From Methanosaeta sp. PtaU1.Bin112 (GTDB lineage: Archaea; Halobacteriota; Methanosarcinia; Methanotrichales; Methanotrichaceae), in contig MVRL01000187.1 in assembly GCA_002067705.1 (NCBI GenBank), forward strand, positions 1 to 50,915: a stretch of 50,915 nucleotides of DNA. Direction: 5' to 3'. How positions within the stretch are numbered: the stretch's first letter is position 1; every line of letters starts with the position of its first letter. Made by a program: the position numbers and the translations under genes. Positions 12,417-24,664 of the stretch are shown piece after piece. Below the pieces are notes generated by a model. That model saw only the letters and a program-made list of their open reading frames with translations, did not search any database and had not been told where the DNA came from.

Positions 12417-15400
12417 TTATGGCATGTAGTTCTCGTAAATATAGATGTCCTTGTCACCGCTGCGATCATCGGTCCAGACGATTCTGCCGGTCTTAATGCG
12501 CGGCTGGGTTTGGTTGCCAGCATCGGTGCAGATCGCTTTCTCCTTTTGAACATTGCGGTCGTAGACATAGATATCCCAGTCTCCGTTGCGATTGTCCTGC
12601 CAGACAACGACACCGTTTTCGACATCCGGATTAGTCTCATCCTCTGGGCTATTGGTTATCTGAACCTCCTTGCTGGTGTTCAGGTCATAAGCAAAGATAT
12701 CCCAGTTTCCGTTCCGGTTATCCTGCCAGACCACCGAATGTCCGTCGGTAGCGGCATTGGCCTGGTCGCTGGCATCGCTGGTCAGCGCCACGGGACTGCT
12801 CCCCTGTTTCCACATCCATATATCCCAGCTGCCTTTCTTGTTATCCTGATAGACAACATAGTCACCACCTGCGCGCGGTTTGATGCCGCTGGGCGGATAG
12901 TCGGGCAGTGCTTCCTTCTCGTAGAGCGGCCTCACGTAGACCATCCATCCGAAATAGCTCTTTCTAAGGTATGCCAGGTAATCTGCGCTGAGGGAGACGG
13001 GTGTAACATTCTCCAGGCCGTAAACCAGCTCGGTGGAGTTGACAATAGATATGTCGAAGGTTCGGATGCACCAATAATCCTCGATGCCATACTGATTTAT
13101 GGGATTGCGGGATATCCAGGCGATGATGCTGCCATCGATGTCCGGGTACATATCCTCATACGGGCCTGCCGCAATCGGCAGCTCCAATTCCTGAGCCAGG
13201 CTGTAGACATAGATGTCGGGTTTTCCGGTGCGATTATCCATCCAGGCCACGTAGTATCCCACCTGGTCATTGCCTCCCACGACCGGGTCGCTCTGATCGC
13301 CTGGCGCTTTGCAGATGGTGCTCATCTGTCCGGCGGTTACGGGCACGGTTCTGGGTCTGCCGCTATGGGTGTTGAGCCAGACCAGCTTTTCATCCATGCT
13401 GGGTTTAATCTGTCCAGGTCCGGCCTGAACCAGCTCATCCTTCCAGTTAGAGAGGTCCAGCTTGCGAATGGAGGTCTCTGGATCGGTGCCGTTCACATAG
13501 GCGATGTATTTTCCAGATATCACGGGATTCGTCTGCTCCCCTGCTCTGGGATAGGTCTTGCCCCATTTCTTATCCCAGAAGTAATAGGTGATATCTTTGC
13601 TATTGGCGTCTTCCCAGGCAATGGTATTTCCGGATATATCGGGATGCAGCTGATCTCCTCCTTCTGTAAGTCGGCTCTCATTTCCGCTTGTCAGATCTTT
13701 GACATAGACATCGAAGTCGCCGTTTCGGTTGTCCTGCCATACGACCAGATTGCTGCTGATGATGGGATACATCTGCTGGCCGGGACCCATGTAGAGGGCA
13801 ACGCTTTCGCCGGTGGCCAGATCATGTATGTAGATATCCCAGTTGCCGCTGGAATTGTCCATCCAGACGATTTTGTCTCCAGAGATGGATGGCCAGGTCT
13901 GATCGTTCTTGCCAGTGGCGATGGCGGATTCGATGCCAGTAGTCACATTCTTTAGATAGATGTCAGCATCTCCATTTCTGTAATCCGCCCAAACCACTCT
14001 ATCGCCTGATGCTTTGGGATAAAGCTGATCCCAATCCCCGTCGGAGATCGGCCTTTCCGATCGTGTGAAGAAATCAAAGCCGAATATATTCCAGTTGCCT
14101 CTGCGATTATCGCTCCATACCAGCAGACTGCCGTTGGTGCTGGGATAATCGGTGGTGAGCATAAGCAGCGGATCGGAGTTGATATATCTCCACTTGATCT
14201 GGGTGTATCCATTGCTATTGTCCATCCAGACAACTTTGTCTTCACTGAGGATCTTGGAAGAGCCATAGGGTTTAACCCGGTACGGGTCTCCTTTTCCGTC
14301 GTTGGGCGACTGTATCATCGGTAATGTTGCTATCGGAACCTCCGAACCTTTTATCTGATCATAGAGGTATATATCTGGGTCTCCTCCGCGCTCATCGAGC
14401 CACGCAATGTATCTGCCAAAGACACATGGTGAGCCTTGGTTGGCAGAGTTGGTGGCAATGGCTTTCTCTGTTTTTGTAGTGAGGTTATAGGCGTAGATGT
14501 CCCAGTTTCGGATACTGCTGTTGGGAGCATTCCTGCCGTCCGCCCAGACGACGGTATCCCCGTATATCCATGCCGGAACCTGGTTCTTGGGGTCGGTACA
14601 GATTGCCATCTCCTCATTTGTGGTCAGGTTGTATAGGTAAATATCCCATTTACCGCTTCGCTTATCAGCCCAGACCACATTCACTCCATTTACAACTGGA
14701 GATAGCTTGCCTCCCGGGATATTGGTTAATTGTCTCTGCTCACCCTTTGAGATGTCGTAAAGATATATCTGGTCCTCTCCGGTGTCGTTATTCAGCCAAA
14801 CGACATAATTGCCGTCGATCATGGAATATCTATGATCGGAAGAGCCTTTTGATATCTGTTTCTCTTTTCCTTTTAGGATGTCATAAAGAAAAACGTCTAG
14901 ATAGCCGTTTCTCTTGTCTGTATATATAATGTAGTTGCCGCTTGCGTCCGCGCTGCTATGATCGATTTTGTTATCAGTAATGGCTTTTTCTTTGCCTGTA
15001 GTGGTGTTATAGAGATAGACGTTGTAGTTGCCGTTGCGATTGTCCGTCCAGACGATGTTATCTGCGGAGATGGAGGGATTTGTCTGGTTGTAAGGCCCGC
15101 TGCTTATGGTCATATCTGCCAGGACTTTAAAATCATAGATCATGACATCTGGATCATTCGGGCCTCGTCTGTATTCCGTCCATACTACGCCGCGATCGCC
15201 GATAGCCGGCTCCATTCTTATGGTTCCCGGTGCAAGTGGAAAGTCTTCGCCGCTTTTTATATCATAGAGGTTGATGTCGGTGTGGTTATTGAGATAGGCA
15301 ATGAAGTTGCCAAAGACCCTGGGGTCAGTCTGCATCCCCGGTTTAGTAAGAGTTGTGGTTTTCTGAGTAGTAGTATCCATGAAGGCTATATCGGACTCTT

Positions 15401-16073
15401 CTGTACGATTATCCGCCCAGGCCACAATATTGCCATATATGGAAGGAAACGACTGATCATTCGGTCCTGTGGAGATCGCTGACTCCTTTTTGCTGGCGAG
15501 ATCGTACATATAAACGTCAAAATCCCCAGAGCGCTTATCCATCCAGACTATTTTATCGCCATTGATCTTTGGATCGATCTGCTCTCCCTTGCCGGGGGAG
15601 ACTACGCTCTTCTTCTTGGTCGTCAGGTCATAGAGGCAGATGTTGTAAGTACCGTTCTGGTCATCCGCCCAGACCACCCTATCATTGCTGATGTCTGGCT
15701 GGGTCTGATTGCCGTCATCTGCAGTTATTTCCGATTCCGTGCGGTTGACTGCATCGTACATGTAAACGTCTGCGTTTCCAGCGCGCATGTCCTGCCAGAT
15801 AATGCGTTCGCCGGACACCGCAGGATTGATCTGAAAAAACGGATTGATGCATACCCATCTCTCCAATCCTGTCTCCAGGTCGTACATGAATATGTCGTAG
15901 TTTCCACTCCTGTTATCCGACCAGGCTACAATATGTCCGTCTATGGCCGGCTGCATCTGCTCCGAGCCCACCAGGATGGATATGGGACGCTCTTTTCCAT
16001 AATCCGCCCCAAAGGCAGCGCCAGAGTAGAGGAGTGCTGCCGTCATAATCATAATGGAGATTGCCTTATGCAT
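12417..16073 (-). CDS. Secreted protein of about 28 TolB-like beta-propeller repeats
   Basis: 1218 residues. An N-terminal signal peptide (MHKAISIMIMTAALLYSGAA, then FGADYG) is followed by about 28 repeats averaging ~43 residues to the very end. The consensus is VVWxDNRxGNxDIYxYDLxTG followed by a polar strand ending in QxxPxIxG. This is the beta-propeller blade of TolB/WD40-like surface proteins. 28 blades would suit four seven-bladed propellers in tandem. There is no C-terminal anchor, so the protein is probably released or held by partners. N-x-T sequons are frequent. Function is unknown; such proteins are common in Methanosarcinales envelopes. Confidence 0.88.
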   Translation of the reverse strand: MHKAISIMIMTAALLYSGAAFGADYGKERPISILVGSEQMQPAIDGHIVAWSDNRSGNYDIFMYDLETGLERWVCINPFFQINPAVSGERIIWQDMRAGNADVYMYDAVNRTESEITADDGNQTQPDISNDRVVWADDQNGTYNICLYDLTTKKKSVVSPGKGEQIDPKINGDKIVWMDKRSGDFDVYMYDLASKKESAISTGPNDQSFPSIYGNIVAWADNRTEESDIAFMDTTTQKTTTLTKPGMQTDPRVFGNFIAYLNNHTDINLYDIKSGEDFPLAPGTIRMEPAIGDRGVVWTEYRRGPNDPDVMIYDFKVLADMTISSGPYNQTNPSISADNIVWTDNRNGNYNVYLYNTTTGKEKAITDNKIDHSSADASGNYIIYTDKRNGYLDVFLYDILKGKEKQISKGSSDHRYSMIDGNYVVWLNNDTGEDQIYLYDISKGEQRQLTNIPGGKLSPVVNGVNVVWADKRSGKWDIYLYNLTTNEEMAICTDPKNQVPAWIYGDTVVWADGRNAPNSSIRNWDIYAYNLTTKTEKAIATNSANQGSPCVFGRYIAWLDERGGDPDIYLYDQIKGSEVPIATLPMIQSPNDGKGDPYRVKPYGSSKILSEDKVVWMDNSNGYTQIKWRYINSDPLLMLTTDYPSTNGSLLVWSDNRRGNWNIFGFDFFTRSERPISDGDWDQLYPKASGDRVVWADYRNGDADIYLKNVTTGIESAIATGKNDQTWPSISGDKIVWMDNSSGNWDIYIHDLATGESVALYMGPGQQMYPIISSNLVVWQDNRNGDFDVYVKDLTSGNESRLTEGGDQLHPDISGNTIAWEDANSKDITYYFWDKKWGKTYPRAGEQTNPVISGKYIAYVNGTDPETSIRKLDLSNWKDELVQAGPGQIKPSMDEKLVWLNTHSGRPRTVPVTAGQMSTICKAPGDQSDPVVGGNDQVGYYVAWMDNRTGKPDIYVYSLAQELELPIAAGPYEDMYPDIDGSIIAWISRNPINQYGIEDYWCIRTFDISIVNSTELVYGLENVTPVSLSADYLAYLRKSYFGWMVYVRPLYEKEALPDYPPSGIKPRAGGDYVVYQDNKKGSWDIWMWKQGSSPVALTSDASDQANAATDGHSVVWQDNRNGNWDIFAYDLNTSKEVQITNSPEDETNPDVENGVVVWQDNRNGDWDIYVYDRNVQKEKAICTDAGNQTQPRIKTGRIVWTDDRSGDKDIYIYENYMP

Positions 16074-19343: not shown

Positions 19344-19992
19344 GTTTTCTTTACACCTCAGAGCTTCTTCTTTGTGAATGCCAGGGAGGTTGCATCGCCT
19401 GCGACATTCACTGATCACCACCCTGTCAGGAACGATAGAAAAAGATGGAGCCGAACGAACGATTCGGAAATCTGCTCATCATCGAGATGAACTTCGACAA
19501 AAGGCGAAAAACCGTTTTATTCTCTATAAACGGATTCGAGAACGTTTTGTTTCCATGATTCTGCCAATCCAGGCGATCTTTTGGCAATTTCGCCTTGAAT
19601 AGGCAGGATCGCCGATGTAGCCGCAGTCCGCCCTGCGGAGAGGGCCGCCCGGCAGAGTCCTTGGCCATGAGGTGCTTGGGCCTATGATGACGTTCTCTGC
19701 GCGAGACTCAGGCATCGCCGCCTTGATGCATCTTAGGCGTTCCCTTTCACGTTGTAGCTGCAAAGGGCAGCAATCTGGCAAAGGTTGTGACGGTCTATTG
19801 AGCAGATGAGGATACATGGCTCAATCATCGGACGCGAAAGACGTAGATGGTCAATGCCTCTGCGGCAGAGGCAAGTTGCATGAGGGATTCACTGAACTTC
19901 GGGTCCGGGTAGATAGGCACCCTGCTGGTCATAAAAAACGTTCCCGCAAGAGTATTCTATCTGATAGAGGCGCAATTGCTAGAGGTTGTCAT
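19344..19992. other. 649-bp region without a convincing gene
   Basis: Only short overlapping frames on both strands are open and none has a recognisable domain, ribosome site or compositional support. The stretch lies between the secreted-protein promoter and the truncated VapC fragment and may include decayed toxin or mobile-element sequence. An AT-rich segment at about 19510-19560 could hold the promoter of the secreted protein. Confidence 0.5.
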
Positions 19993-20097
19993 CTAAGATC
20001 TCTGCGTATCGATCGATTCCAGAAACCGCCGCACCTCTGCTGCTCTCTCCTGCTGAAGGAGAAGCTCAAGCCATACGTTGGTATCCAGCAGGTACAT
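19993..20097 (-). pseudogene. Truncated VapC-type PIN toxin
   Basis: ATG 20097 opens a PIN domain start, MYLLDTNVWLELLLQQERA, with the first catalytic Asp at residue 5, but the frame stops after 34 residues where PIN toxins have about 130. No other frame downstream clearly restores the lost D/E motifs. The start overlaps the antitoxin stop as TGATG, the usual toxin-antitoxin coupling. It is interpreted as a decayed toxin; a functional mini-protein is unlikely. Confidence 0.75.
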
Positions 20098-20378
20098 CAA
20101 TCGCCCCACCAGTCTAACGAGTCCTTCTGAAGCTCCTGCGATGTGTACTGATCGCGAAACTCTTTCAAGCCTCCGGCCCAATCCAGCCGAAGCCTCCTCC
20201 TTTTCGGCTTGGCCCTCTTCTCCGCCAGGAACATGGCGAAGTCGCGGACCTCTTGCTGGTGCTCAGGAGGCAGCGAGGCCATGATCTCTTCAAGGGATTC
20301 CATCAGGATGTTATTGTCCTTCGACGCTAAAAGGTTCTCTGAGGGATTCGGGGCAATATCCGCGATTTGTGTGCCCAT
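20097..20378 (-). CDS. VapB-type antitoxin (DUF2281-like)
   Basis: 93 residues from ATG 20378, or 68 from ATG 20303, which is closer to the usual size. The core LPPEHQQEVRDFAMFLAEKR is the family's helical DNA-binding/dimer region, and the tail LRLDWAGGLKEFRDQYTS resembles the toxin-neutralising segment of these antitoxins. It is translationally coupled to the truncated PIN gene. Its frame is intact although its partner is broken. Confidence 0.78.
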   Translation of the reverse strand: MGTQIADIAPNPSENLLASKDNNILMESLEEIMASLPPEHQQEVRDFAMFLAEKRAKPKRRRLRLDWAGGLKEFRDQYTSQELQKDSLDWWGD

Positions 20379-20412
20379 CTCGACTGGTCCGCCACGCAGG
20401 GCCCCTGGACGG

Positions 20413-20469
20413 CTATTTTAGCGCGATCCGAATTTCGCGCACTACGCACTCGTCAACAGGAAATCGCAT
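20413..20469 (-). pseudogene. Truncated DUF5615-type PIN-like toxin
   Basis: Immediately after the DUF433 stop (TAG then ATG with no gap), ATG 20469 encodes MRFPVDECVVREIRIALK and stops. The first residues resemble DUF5615 toxins, which start with a hydrophobic strand ending in D-E-C/N. The expected ~100 further residues are missing. The genetic order DUF433 then DUF5615 is a known type II toxin-antitoxin layout, so I read this as a second decayed toxin. Confidence 0.55.
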
Positions 20470-20718
20470 CTAAACGGACTTGGTCGCGAGTGGAATGAAA
20501 GAGGCATCTTGAAGAGCCTTGGAGGCAAAGAGGAGACAAGCATAGATGTCGTCTTTTTCCAAGCCAGGATACTCTGCCAGGATCTCCTCCATGATGATGC
20601 CGTGAGCAAGGAAGCCTAGGATGTATTCTACGGTAAGCCGGGTGCCCCGGATGACTGGCTTGCCTACCATCACTTTGGGATTTATAGTTATCCTTTGCAG
20701 CATATCTTCATTATTCAC
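20470..20718 (-). CDS. DUF433 antitoxin-like protein
   Basis: 82 residues. The sequence matches the DUF433 pattern: ITINPKVMVGKPVIRGTRLT (strand and turn), then VEYILGFLAHGIIMEEILAE and YPGLEKDDIYACLLFAS. These small helix-turn-helix proteins act as antitoxins or regulators and usually pair with a PIN-like toxin. Its partner here is a remnant. The gene follows the nuclease pseudogene on the same strand by 40 bp. Confidence 0.85.
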   Translation of the reverse strand: MNNEDMLQRITINPKVMVGKPVIRGTRLTVEYILGFLAHGIIMEEILAEYPGLEKDDIYACLLFASKALQDASFIPLATKSV

Positions 20719-20758
20719 AAAGATGCTATTGGATGCACTCTTGATATAAATGTGAGTT

Positions 20759-21775
20759 TTATTGTCGCTTCTTCAACTCTTCAAGCACTTCTCTAACTAC
20801 ATCCCGGTACTTTGGCCGAATCGAAAAGTTGTCTTTCTCCCAATGATGTCGTGGGTACTCGTATGCAACAACTTGTCGAAGAAAATCATTCTTCTTCATA
20901 CCAAGCTGCGACGAAATTGATGTCAGGTAGAATCCTACTTTCGATTCATCGCAATTCTGATCGAACTCAACAAATTTGCTTGATAATTGTTCTCTGCTGA
21001 GTTTATCCGATTCCTTGTTATTCAAGAGTGATGGAAACAAAATGTCCCGCATTCGCCGGTTAGTGACTCTGTCTCTTGAGAGGTAATCTAGTAACAACCA
21101 TTTCAAGCTTGACACGTCATAATCAACGGCAGGAGGTTCATCGGACATTGGGATTTCAAACTTTTTCCTTTTTCCGCTCCGCTCCTGTTCCGCCTCTTCA
21201 GAAATAATGGATGTTTTCATCAGAAGTTCGTCTCCACCACTTGTCTTGACATAATTTAGAACTATGGCATTGACGTTGACTTCATATGAATCCGAAAGCC
21301 ATTCAATCATTCTTTCTAGAGACGCCTCGATGGAGAAGCCGACAAGGAGAATTCTCTGCGTGCTATTGAGATTTACATTCTCCAGATCGACATCAGGAAA
21401 TCTCTCGTTGAATGATTCCCCGAATGCTTTTGAAGTGTATGATGAATGAATTTCGCTCAATTTTTCGGCAGTCCATTCAGCAACATTTGATGCGTAATCG
21501 ATCGCTTGAGCCAGTGTCTCGCGTGGCAATTCGGCGCGCTTGATTTAAATAATTACTGTATTTCCTGATTTGTCAATGCCGAGTAAATCAATAGGCCCGG
21601 ATTTAGTCATCACCTGTCTGCCAATTATCATGATATCTGCCCCTATTATTTCCGGATTTGATGCAAGCCAGGGTTCAAGATCATATGGCTCAGTTCGACC
21701 TTCATCTTTTAGAGCAGTAACCACGGATGTTAACTTGCCGTCTATTATTTGCCATGTTTTTATTTCAGTTCCCAT
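20759..21775 (-). pseudogene. NucS/DUF91-like PD-(D/E)XK endonuclease with in-frame stop at catalytic Glu
   Basis: Two open frames, 21545-21775 and 20759-21529, lie in the same reading frame separated by TAA 21545-21547. Together they would encode 338 residues. The first part has EPWLASNPEIIGADIMIIGR and GPIDLLGIDKSGNTVII, the N-terminal part of the RecB/NucS-like nuclease core; translation after the stop gives IKRAELP. In the family this position reads (V/I)ELKR or EVKR, so the stop replaces the Glu of the D-ExK motif (one G-to-T change from GAA). The C-terminal part is helical and not recognised. A second initiation at TTG 21529 would lack the active site. Confidence 0.72.
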
Positions 21776-21840: not shown

Positions 21841-24576
21841 TTAGCCCCTCATCGCTTCTCGTCCCGCCTTCAGGGCCTCGTCCAGCTTTCCGGCGTTGGG
21901 CCCTCCGCCTTGCGCCAGCTCAGGCCTGCCTCCGCCGCCTCCGCCCAGGGCGCGCGCCGCAACTCGGATGATGCTGCCCGCCTTGATTCCTTTCGCCAGG
22001 CCCGACTGGCCCACGGCAGAGACGAGCTTTCCGGTCTCGCTGCCCAAAAGGGCGATGCAGTCCTGCTCAGCCAAAAGCGCAGCTGCCTTGAGCAGCTCAT
22101 CTATATCGGCATTGCCCATCTTCTGCACCACGATTCTGAGGCCGTCCACAGTCTCGGCCTCGGCGATCAAGGTCTTGAGCCGCGCTTTTGCCAGATCTTC
22201 CTTCAGTCGCTCAATCTCCTTCTGCTGGCCCTTCCACTCCTCAAAGAAGCGGGATGCCGTCTTGGCCAGCTGCTCCGCAGGCACGCGCAGCACATCCGCC
22301 GCGCCCGAGAGCAGGTCGTCCCTCTCCTGGCCCGCCCTAACTGCGGCTTCGCCAGCGGCAAACTCGATCCTCTCCACGCCGTCCTGAATGCGCTCGGATC
22401 GCAGGATCTTGATGGCGCCGATCATGCCCGTGTTGGTGACATGCGTTCCCGCGCAGGCCTCGATGTCACTGCCCACGCGCACCACCCGAATCTGATCGCC
22501 GGGCGGAACGCCACCCTGGTAAAGCTCAAAGCCGAAGAGCTTCTCAGCCTCGGTCCTGGGCAGGAACTGGGTGTCCACTGGCTGCATCTCCATCACCCTC
22601 CGGTTGGCCTCTAGCTCAATTGCCTTCAGCTCGCCGTCGGTGATGCGCTTGTAGTGGGAGATGTCCAGCCGTGCCCGGTCCTCGCTCTTCTGGGCTCCGG
22701 CCTGCCAGACGTGCTTTCCTAAAACGCGCTTAGCGGAGTCGTGCACCAGATGGGTGGCTGTGTGGTGCCGGGCATGAGCCATACGGCGGCGCATATCCAC
22801 CTTGCCGTCAACCCAATCGCCTTTCTGTAGCTCCGGCAGGCCGGCGGCCCTGGCCAGCTTGTGCAGGACCACCTCTCCAGACTTCTGGACATCCACTACC
22901 GAATAGACCTGGCCGTCCTTCTCCAGGGTGCCGTGATCGCAAGGCTGGCCGCCGCCCTCTGGGTAGAGGAGCGTCCGGTCCAGAATAACGCTGCCGTCTT
23001 CGGCGATATCCAGAACCTGAGCAGAGAAGACCCAATCGTTGGGATGACCGTAGAAGAGAAGCTCTGTCTTGCCGGGCCGGGGGGCGGCAGCCGCCTCCTC
23101 CTTCTCCGCCCGGATGCGCTTCTTGGCCACCAGAGAATAGAAGTTGTCCGGAAGCACCACCGCTGCGCCCAGCTCCTCCGCTGACTCGCGGGCGATCTCG
23201 GGTGGAATGCCGTGCGTGTCGTAAAGGGAGATCATCTCCTCCAGGGGTATGGGCAGCTTCTTCTGGAGGTAGCTCTCCGCAGTCTTTCTGACCAGGCGCT
23301 TGCCCTTCTCCAGGGTCTCGGCATACTTCTGCTCCTCCTGGTCGAGTATCTCCTTGATGGTGACAAAACGCTCCTGCCAGTCGGGATAGTCCAGCCTCTG
23401 AATCTGCATCTGCACCAGCTCCGCCAGCGGCATTGTGAGATCCAGCTCCTTCATCAGGCGAAGGGTGCGGCGTATGACCAGTCTGGAAAGGTAGCCTGCT
23501 TTGACATTGGAGGGGATGATGCCGTCGCCCAGCATGTAGGCCAGGCAGCGGGTGTGGTCGACCACTGCGTAGATGCGCTCCATTGGCTCAATGGTCTTCG
23601 AGAGCTTCTCAGGCGAGATGCCAATGTTGCCTGCAATCTTCTTGCGAAGATCCTCCATGCTGTACTCATCCAGGTCTACCATTCCCGCCAGCCTGGCGTT
23701 CTGAGCGAAGATCTCGGCGTACTCGGCATCCTTCAGATTGTGCTCAACTCCGGCAAGATCTGCCACCCTGCGGACTAGATCCGGGAAGATGGCATCATAG
23801 ATGGTGGGCGATCCGGTGGAGGCCCAGACAAACCTCTCCAGGCCATATCCTGTGTCCACGATGTAGTTGTTCATCTTCTCATAAGCCTCGCCCTTGATCT
23901 GGATGGACCCGTTGGGCACAGCTTTGAGGTCCATGAAGACCAGAGTGGCCAGCTCCAGTCCGCCGATCATGACCTCCACGCTCGGGCCGGCATTGCCGCC
24001 GCCAGCCCAGGGGTTCTCCTTGTAGGTCACCGCCAGGGGGTCCATGCCGAGGCCCAGCAGCAGCTCATCGCATAGCGCAACCGTCCGATCCTTCCAGTAA
24101 TGCTCTTTTTCTCGGGTGTTGAAGACGTGGTGGGCCATCATCTCGAAGGTGGTAAGGTGCCGCCCGCTGCGCCCTACCGAATCGAGGTCGTCCAGTCTGA
24201 TGCAGGGCTGGCTGATGGTGAGCGGATTAGCGGGTGGCGGCACCTGTCCGGAGGTGACGAATGGTTGGAAGTCGGCGATGGAAGCAATGGTTAGGTAAAT
24301 GTCGTCTCGCCAGCGGGCCACCACTGGATACCTCTTGATGCGGGCGTGCCCTCTGCTTTCAAAGAAGTTGAGGTAGTGCTCGCGCATCTCGTCTATGGTG
24401 TGCTTGCGCTTGAATATGGGCGAGCCGATAAAGGTATAGGGATCGCAGGGTGGGTCCCCGCAGGTCTTCCTCTCGCCGTTCCTGGTCCAGAAGAATTTGC
24501 CGCATTTTTCGCACTTCTTTCGCTGGAATCCCTCATCCACGAAGAAGTCTAGTCGATACTCATCCTCGGAGAACAT
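21841..24576 (-). CDS. alaS: Alanyl-tRNA synthetase (archaeal type)
   Basis: 911 residues from ATG 24576; a TTG two codons earlier is a weaker start. It charges tRNA-Ala and clears misacylated Ser and Gly. The archaeal N-terminal extension has a cysteine pair CEKCGKFFW and CGDPPC, likely binding zinc, before the class II aminoacylation domain (FESRGHARIKRYPVVARW, then TISQPCIRLDDLDSVGRSGR). The editing domain has HARHHTATH and CAGTH. The C-terminal oligomerisation domain ends with a glycine cluster ALGGGGGGRPELAQGG. It is monocistronic. Confidence 0.97.
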   Translation of the reverse strand: MFSEDEYRLDFFVDEGFQRKKCEKCGKFFWTRNGERKTCGDPPCDPYTFIGSPIFKRKHTIDEMREHYLNFFESRGHARIKRYPVVARWRDDIYLTIASIADFQPFVTSGQVPPPANPLTISQPCIRLDDLDSVGRSGRHLTTFEMMAHHVFNTREKEHYWKDRTVALCDELLLGLGMDPLAVTYKENPWAGGGNAGPSVEVMIGGLELATLVFMDLKAVPNGSIQIKGEAYEKMNNYIVDTGYGLERFVWASTGSPTIYDAIFPDLVRRVADLAGVEHNLKDAEYAEIFAQNARLAGMVDLDEYSMEDLRKKIAGNIGISPEKLSKTIEPMERIYAVVDHTRCLAYMLGDGIIPSNVKAGYLSRLVIRRTLRLMKELDLTMPLAELVQMQIQRLDYPDWQERFVTIKEILDQEEQKYAETLEKGKRLVRKTAESYLQKKLPIPLEEMISLYDTHGIPPEIARESAEELGAAVVLPDNFYSLVAKKRIRAEKEEAAAAPRPGKTELLFYGHPNDWVFSAQVLDIAEDGSVILDRTLLYPEGGGQPCDHGTLEKDGQVYSVVDVQKSGEVVLHKLARAAGLPELQKGDWVDGKVDMRRRMAHARHHTATHLVHDSAKRVLGKHVWQAGAQKSEDRARLDISHYKRITDGELKAIELEANRRVMEMQPVDTQFLPRTEAEKLFGFELYQGGVPPGDQIRVVRVGSDIEACAGTHVTNTGMIGAIKILRSERIQDGVERIEFAAGEAAVRAGQERDDLLSGAADVLRVPAEQLAKTASRFFEEWKGQQKEIERLKEDLAKARLKTLIAEAETVDGLRIVVQKMGNADIDELLKAAALLAEQDCIALLGSETGKLVSAVGQSGLAKGIKAGSIIRVAARALGGGGGGRPELAQGGGPNAGKLDEALKAGREAMRG

Positions 24577-24664
24577 AGTCAATCAGCTTGTAATCGGAGG
24601 ATGATTGCAGGAATGCTAAAAGGTTTTCCCGAGATATGATAATTATCTATAGGAAAATATATGG

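What the first reader, a model, noticed from the sequence alone, without database searches (positions are those of the whole stretch)
20759..21775. Nuclease gene with a nonsense codon at its predicted catalytic glutamate
The two frames are in phase, separated only by TAA 21545-21547. Aligned by motif, the stop falls at the Glu of the D-(x13)-E-x-K core (Asp in PIDLLG, then 14 residues later the stop, then I-K). This is the spacing of NucS-type nucleases. One base change (GAA to TAA) would do it. The rest of the frame has not yet decayed, so the loss looks recent or selected, for example to remove toxicity while keeping a binding domain.
Basis: partly seen in the sequence, partly recalled or inferred. 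Interest (0 to 1): 0.68.

Follow-up and report, generated by a model that had tools for sequence, protein, structure and literature searches.

The report
Nuclease pseudogene, stop at catalytic glutamate
A methane-producing archaeon carries a horizontally acquired, probably anti-phage nuclease gene that a single stop codon cuts exactly where relatives have the catalytic glutamate; it is most likely an ordinary recently broken gene in a patch of other broken toxin and defence genes.

Summary
On the minus strand, a 338-codon frame (21775-20762) is interrupted only by TAA at 21547-21545. All 17 intact relatives inspected carry Glu at that column. It aligns without gaps to E174 of Pyrococcus abyssi NucS, and the frame's Asp63 and Lys79 align to D160 and K176. 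The gene is a NucS-like PD-(D/E)XK nuclease whose best library match is the PADLOC phage-defence candidate PDC-S11. It was acquired horizontally: it is patchy in the genus, has 42% G+C against 61% for neighbouring alaS, and is absent at the alaS-DUF433 junction of three relatives.

The interpretation that the catalytic site was selectively removed is not supported. The stop truncates the protein to 76 residues instead of swapping one residue, and I saw no good restart site. Three other genes within 2 kb are also damaged. Stops in other family members fall at non-catalytic positions. The simplest reading is a recent chance nonsense mutation in dispensable mobile cargo. An assembly error remains possible because no reads are available. 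The region downstream of alaS looks like an insertion hotspot for small toxin/defence modules in this genus, which is perhaps the more useful finding.

The parts
20762..21775 (-). Interrupted gene for a NucS-like PD-(D/E)XK nuclease (best library match PADLOC PDC-S11), 338 codons
   Evidence: NucS_C E=3e-7; PDC-S11 profile PDLC04916 E=3e-43 over residues 1-203 of the read-through.
21545..21547 (-). In-frame TAA at codon 77, the column of the catalytic Glu
   Evidence: Glu in all 17 intact relatives; aligns to residue 174 of 2vld.
21548..21775 (-). Open 76-codon N-terminal stub; keeps Asp63, lacks Glu77 and Lys79
20762..21529 (-). Downstream open frame (256 codons from a TTG): rest of the nuclease domain plus a predicted helical C-terminal domain
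   Evidence: an intact relative folds with helices predicted over residues 219-331.
21841..24582 (-). alaS, alanyl-tRNA synthetase, intact; upstream neighbour and edge of the insertion hotspot
   Evidence: tRNA-synt_2c E=1e-122..
20470..20718 (-). DUF433 antitoxin-like gene, intact; directly follows alaS in three relatives that lack the nuclease
   Evidence: PF04255 E=1e-23..
20097..20378 (-). DUF2281 antitoxin-like gene, intact
   Evidence: PF10047 E=4e-14.
19995..20102 (-). Truncated PIN-like (VapC-like) gene: MYLLDTNVWLELLL... ends after about 33 residues
   Evidence: translation; assignment by eye from the start motif.
19816..19995 (+). Disrupted antitoxin-like gene; identity to the G020 copy is lost after residue 33
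   Evidence: against L075.
19730..19843 (+). Remnant of its partner toxin-like gene with an internal stop, ...VTVY*ADED...

Best explanation
This is a recently formed pseudogene. Shown: a NucS-like PD-(D/E)XK nuclease gene of the PDC-S11 type, foreign in composition and patchy in distribution, sits between alaS and a DUF433 gene in a Methanothrix-group archaeon; one nonsense codon falls on its catalytic Glu column; intact copies exist elsewhere. Inferred: when intact it cuts DNA, probably of invaders, using Asp63, Glu77 and Lys79, with a C-terminal helical domain that may bind DNA or an oligomer partner. Inferred: the nonsense mutation gives a short inactive stub and so no nuclease. Its position on the catalytic codon is chance, because the gene was dispensable, like its decaying neighbours.
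For: One internal stop in an otherwise full-length conserved frame. 40 of 43 columns invariant in relatives are kept, and one of the three lost is the stop itself. No further stops: at 5% neutral divergence 2.8 would be expected and P(none)=0.06, so the lesion is young. Foreign gene: 42% G+C and 41% GC3 against 61% and 78% in alaS; homologues in only 3 of 25 other genus members, one of them just 30% identical; relatives 71-76% identical in bacterial records. Absent site: alaS is followed directly by DUF433 in G006, G014 and G004. Neighbouring genes are also broken. In the same order 3 of 9 strong PDC-S11 genes are broken, the others by a stop at residue 46 and a frameshift. Three further stop-bearing members of the phylum have the stop downstream of the catalytic motif.
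Against: No reads, so a base error in this 200-contig draft cannot be excluded. About 134 codons of the gene are one step from a stop or are the stop, so a hit on this exact codon is a roughly 1% coincidence under chance, judged after the fact. Constraint after the stop is only mildly relaxed (omega 0.146 against 0.036), and an intact relative shows 0.136.
Confidence: 0.72

Rival explanations
1. Assembly or sequencing error: the organism has an intact nuclease and the TAA is a wrong consensus base, or a minor strain allele, in the metagenome assembly.
For: The genome is a 200-contig draft with 3.7% estimated contamination. The rest of the frame is well kept. No reads are available.
Against: About 57 ABC-transporter domains of the same genome show no isolated in-frame stop; the few disrupted frames look like frameshifts. 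Other genes in the same 2 kb are broken by several kinds of lesion.
Confidence: 0.2
2. Selected catalytic knock-out: loss of the Glu was favoured to stop self-toxicity while the N-terminal stub or the C-terminal domain is still made and used.
For: The stop is exactly on the catalytic codon. The downstream frame is open for 256 codons and still constrained on average.
Against: A stop removes the whole downstream protein; a missense change would be the expected way to keep a dead binder. No good restart site was seen. Other broken members carry lesions elsewhere. The part after the stop has departed at C110H, G215P, K265S and L326V and gained two private in-frame insertions.
Confidence: 0.05
3. 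Programmed or suppressor-mediated readthrough of TAA, inserting a residue at the active site as a switch.
For: The frame on both sides is conserved.
Against: No tRNA with a UUA anticodon was recognised among 44 tRNA matches; the odd 'ttaa' ARAGORN call is consistent with an intron-containing tRNA-Asn. No relative carries a stop at this column. I know of no archaeal recoding of TAA.
Confidence: 0.02

Closest known systems
PADLOC phage-defence candidate PDC-S11 (profile PDLC04916)
   Same: N-terminal match over residues 1-203, E=3e-43; intact relatives score the same. Some relatives sit beside restriction genes such as McrC, GmrSD, HsdR and Eco57I.
   Different: The C-terminal part is not covered by the profile match. 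The window copy is interrupted. PDC-S11 is a candidate; I found no experimental test of its function.
NucS/EndoMS mismatch endonuclease (Pfam PF01939; PDB 2vld, 5gke)
   Same: Same PD-(D/E)XK core and the same D-x13-E-x-K spacing. Best fold-search hits are 2vld and 5gke, E about 1e-3.
   Different: No match to the NucS N-terminal domain, and an extra C-terminal domain. Scores far below the NCBIfam NucS equivalog cut-off (40 against 216 bits).
SduA (Shedu) nuclease
   Same: Weak fold-search hits to 8ps4 and 8ps5.
   Different: E=0.04-0.08, not significant.

Membership tests
PDC-S11 (PADLOC) | Match to a PDC-S11 profile | tested here: met
   PDLC04916 E=3e-43, with four more PDC-S11 profiles at E<=2e-15.
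PDC-S11 (PADLOC) | Intact catalytic D-E-K | tested here: not met
   codon 77 (Glu in relatives) is a stop, so the window copy is a broken member, not a working one.
PDC-S11 (PADLOC) | Anti-phage activity | not testable with these tools
   No assay; the family is itself only a candidate.
NucS/EndoMS | NucS C-terminal nuclease domain | tested here: met
   PF01939 30.9 bits, cut-off 24, over residues 33-82.
NucS/EndoMS | Full-length NucS architecture (equivalog score) | tested here: not met
   40.2 bits against a cut-off of 216; only profile positions 131-203 match.
Pseudogene | Reading frame disrupted relative to intact homologues | tested here: met
Pseudogene | Lesion present in the organism and not an assembly error | not testable with these tools
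   No reads available.
Pseudogene | Relaxed selection | tested here: inconclusive
   omega 0.146 after the stop, but an intact relative has 0.136 and synonymous sites are saturated.

The most novel reading that the evidence does not exclude
The nonsense allele is maintained: a nuclease-dead derivative (the downstream domain produced by re-initiation, or the N-terminal stub) still acts, for example as an antagonist or regulator of other nucleases of the family.
Probability: 0.03. Interest if true: 0.6.

Novelty: new member of a known kind. Interest (0 to 1): 0.2.

Why it matters
It documents turnover of a poorly studied candidate defence nuclease in methanogens: gain by transfer into a site beside alaS, then loss by mutation. 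The site looks like a hotspot for small toxin/defence modules in Methanothrix. The stop at the catalytic residue is eye-catching but needs no special mechanism.

Tried and rejected
Recoding of TAA: no UUA-anticodon tRNA recognised among 44 tRNA matches. The ARAGORN 'ttaa' call looks like an intron-containing tRNA-Asn, and the matches ARAGORN left uncalled read by eye as Lys or Ser with introns.

Recurrent stops at the Glu: rejected, because other stops in the family lie elsewhere.

A branch-specific codon model was fitted. The post-stop elevation (2 delta lnL 8.4) is matched by intact L017 (7.0), so it was not used as proof. Pairwise dN/dS was useless because synonymous sites are saturated.

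Viral contigs and phage records gave no relatives. Plasmids gave only distant ones below 40% identity in the rows listed.

Full report
Observation. On the minus strand, 21775-20762 is one frame of 338 codons with a single internal stop, TAA at codon 77 (21547-21545). The gene has an ATG start preceded by a GGAG-like stretch, 65 bases after the end of alaS. The read-through protein, with X at the stop, hits Pfam NucS_C (E=3e-7) and PADLOC PDC-S11 (E=3e-43).

The stop column. Relatives were collected from the genus and from bacterial and archaeal genomes. In every intact one inspected the column holds Glu, within (V/I)(I/V)E(I/L)KR. phmmer against solved structures aligns the frame gaplessly to P. 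abyssi NucS, placing Asp63, the stop and Lys79 on residues 160, 174 and 176. The review PMC7343888 lists D160, E174 and K176 among the conserved motif residues, and D165, E179 and K181 as the catalytic sites of Tko EndoMS. Codons in 16 relatives are 9 GAG and 7 GAA, and the window gene itself prefers GAA by 22 to 11, so one base change is plausible but not proven.

What the gene is. It is not a full NucS. It matches only the nuclease part of NucS models and stays far below the equivalog cut-off. An AlphaFold model of an intact relative has moderate overall confidence (mean pLDDT 71, pTM 0.46): the nuclease core and a helical C-terminal domain of about residues 219-331 are the better parts. Fold search puts 2vld and 5gke first at E about 1e-3, with weak SduA and winged-helix hits below. 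In at least five relatives the neighbours are restriction-type genes: Eco57I methylase, GIY-YIG/RAMA, McrC, GmrSD and HsdR. This fits PADLOC's label of phage-defence candidate; the function is untested.

Origin. Homologues occur in few genus members: 3 of 25 others have a match, at 77, 71 and 30% identity. Relatives of 71-76% identity sit in records labelled Peptococcaceae, Hydrogenedentota and Aminicenantes. The gene has 42% G+C and 41% GC3, against 61% and 78% for alaS next door. In G006, G014 and G004 alaS is followed directly by the DUF433 gene. DNA similarity between the window and G006/G004 resumes at an ATTTATATC box just after the nuclease's own stop. The nuclease was therefore inserted between alaS and DUF433, or lost from the three relatives; insertion is simpler given the composition.

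State of decay. 40 of 43 columns invariant in relatives are kept, and one of the three lost is the stop. Four strongly conserved post-stop positions have departed (C110H, G215P, K265S, L326V), and there are two private in-frame insertions. No further stop is present; with 5% neutral divergence 2.8 would be expected. A branch codon model gives omega 0.018 before and 0.146 after the stop, against a background of 0.03-0.04. Intact L017 gives 0.136 after the stop, and synonymous sites are saturated, so this is suggestive only.

Neighbourhood. Within 2 kb downstream a PIN-like gene ends after about 33 residues. An antitoxin-like gene loses identity to its G020 copy after residue 33, and its partner carries an internal stop. 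Decay is regional, not confined to the nuclease's active site.

Are stops at the Glu special? In the order, 3 of 9 strong PDC-S11 genes are broken: the window copy, G056 by TAG at residue 46, and G049 by a frameshift near residue 171. Phylum-wide, three more listed matches carry in-frame stops, all downstream of the catalytic motif. Nothing points to targeting of the Glu.

Error or real? No reads are available. About 57 ABC-transporter domains of the same genome show no isolated in-frame stop, though a few disrupted frames exist. A random base error is thus unlikely a priori but not excluded.

Verdict. A confirmed observation with an ordinary best explanation: a recently inactivated, horizontally acquired candidate defence nuclease. 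Its stop codon falls on the catalytic residue most likely by chance (about 1 in 134 stop-accessible codons).

Noticed in passing
Downstream of alaS, window 19730-21775; L075, L076, L080, L083, L086, L091, L093, L095: The alaS 3' end looks like an insertion hotspot in Methanothrix: different toxin-antitoxin-like modules or the nuclease follow it in different species.
   Followed up: partly
L076:782-850, L086:2745-2891, L095:2750-2818 (weak in L083:2719-2835): Displaced copies of the alaS C-terminal end lie roughly 0.65-0.8 kb downstream of the intact alaS, as if modules arrived together with a replacement alaS tail.
   Followed up: partly
L100 (G056:C159), L103 (G049:C11): Two further PDC-S11 genes in the order are broken, by TAG at residue 46 and by a frameshift.
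   Followed up: yes
L072:1505-2575 and L073:981-2765 (window's own genome, C147 and C155): Two other intact NucS_C-domain proteins in the same genome, one fused to repeats that look like TPRs.
   Followed up: partly
window 12417-16073: A 1218-residue protein built of many repeats resembling beta-propeller blades.
   Followed up: no
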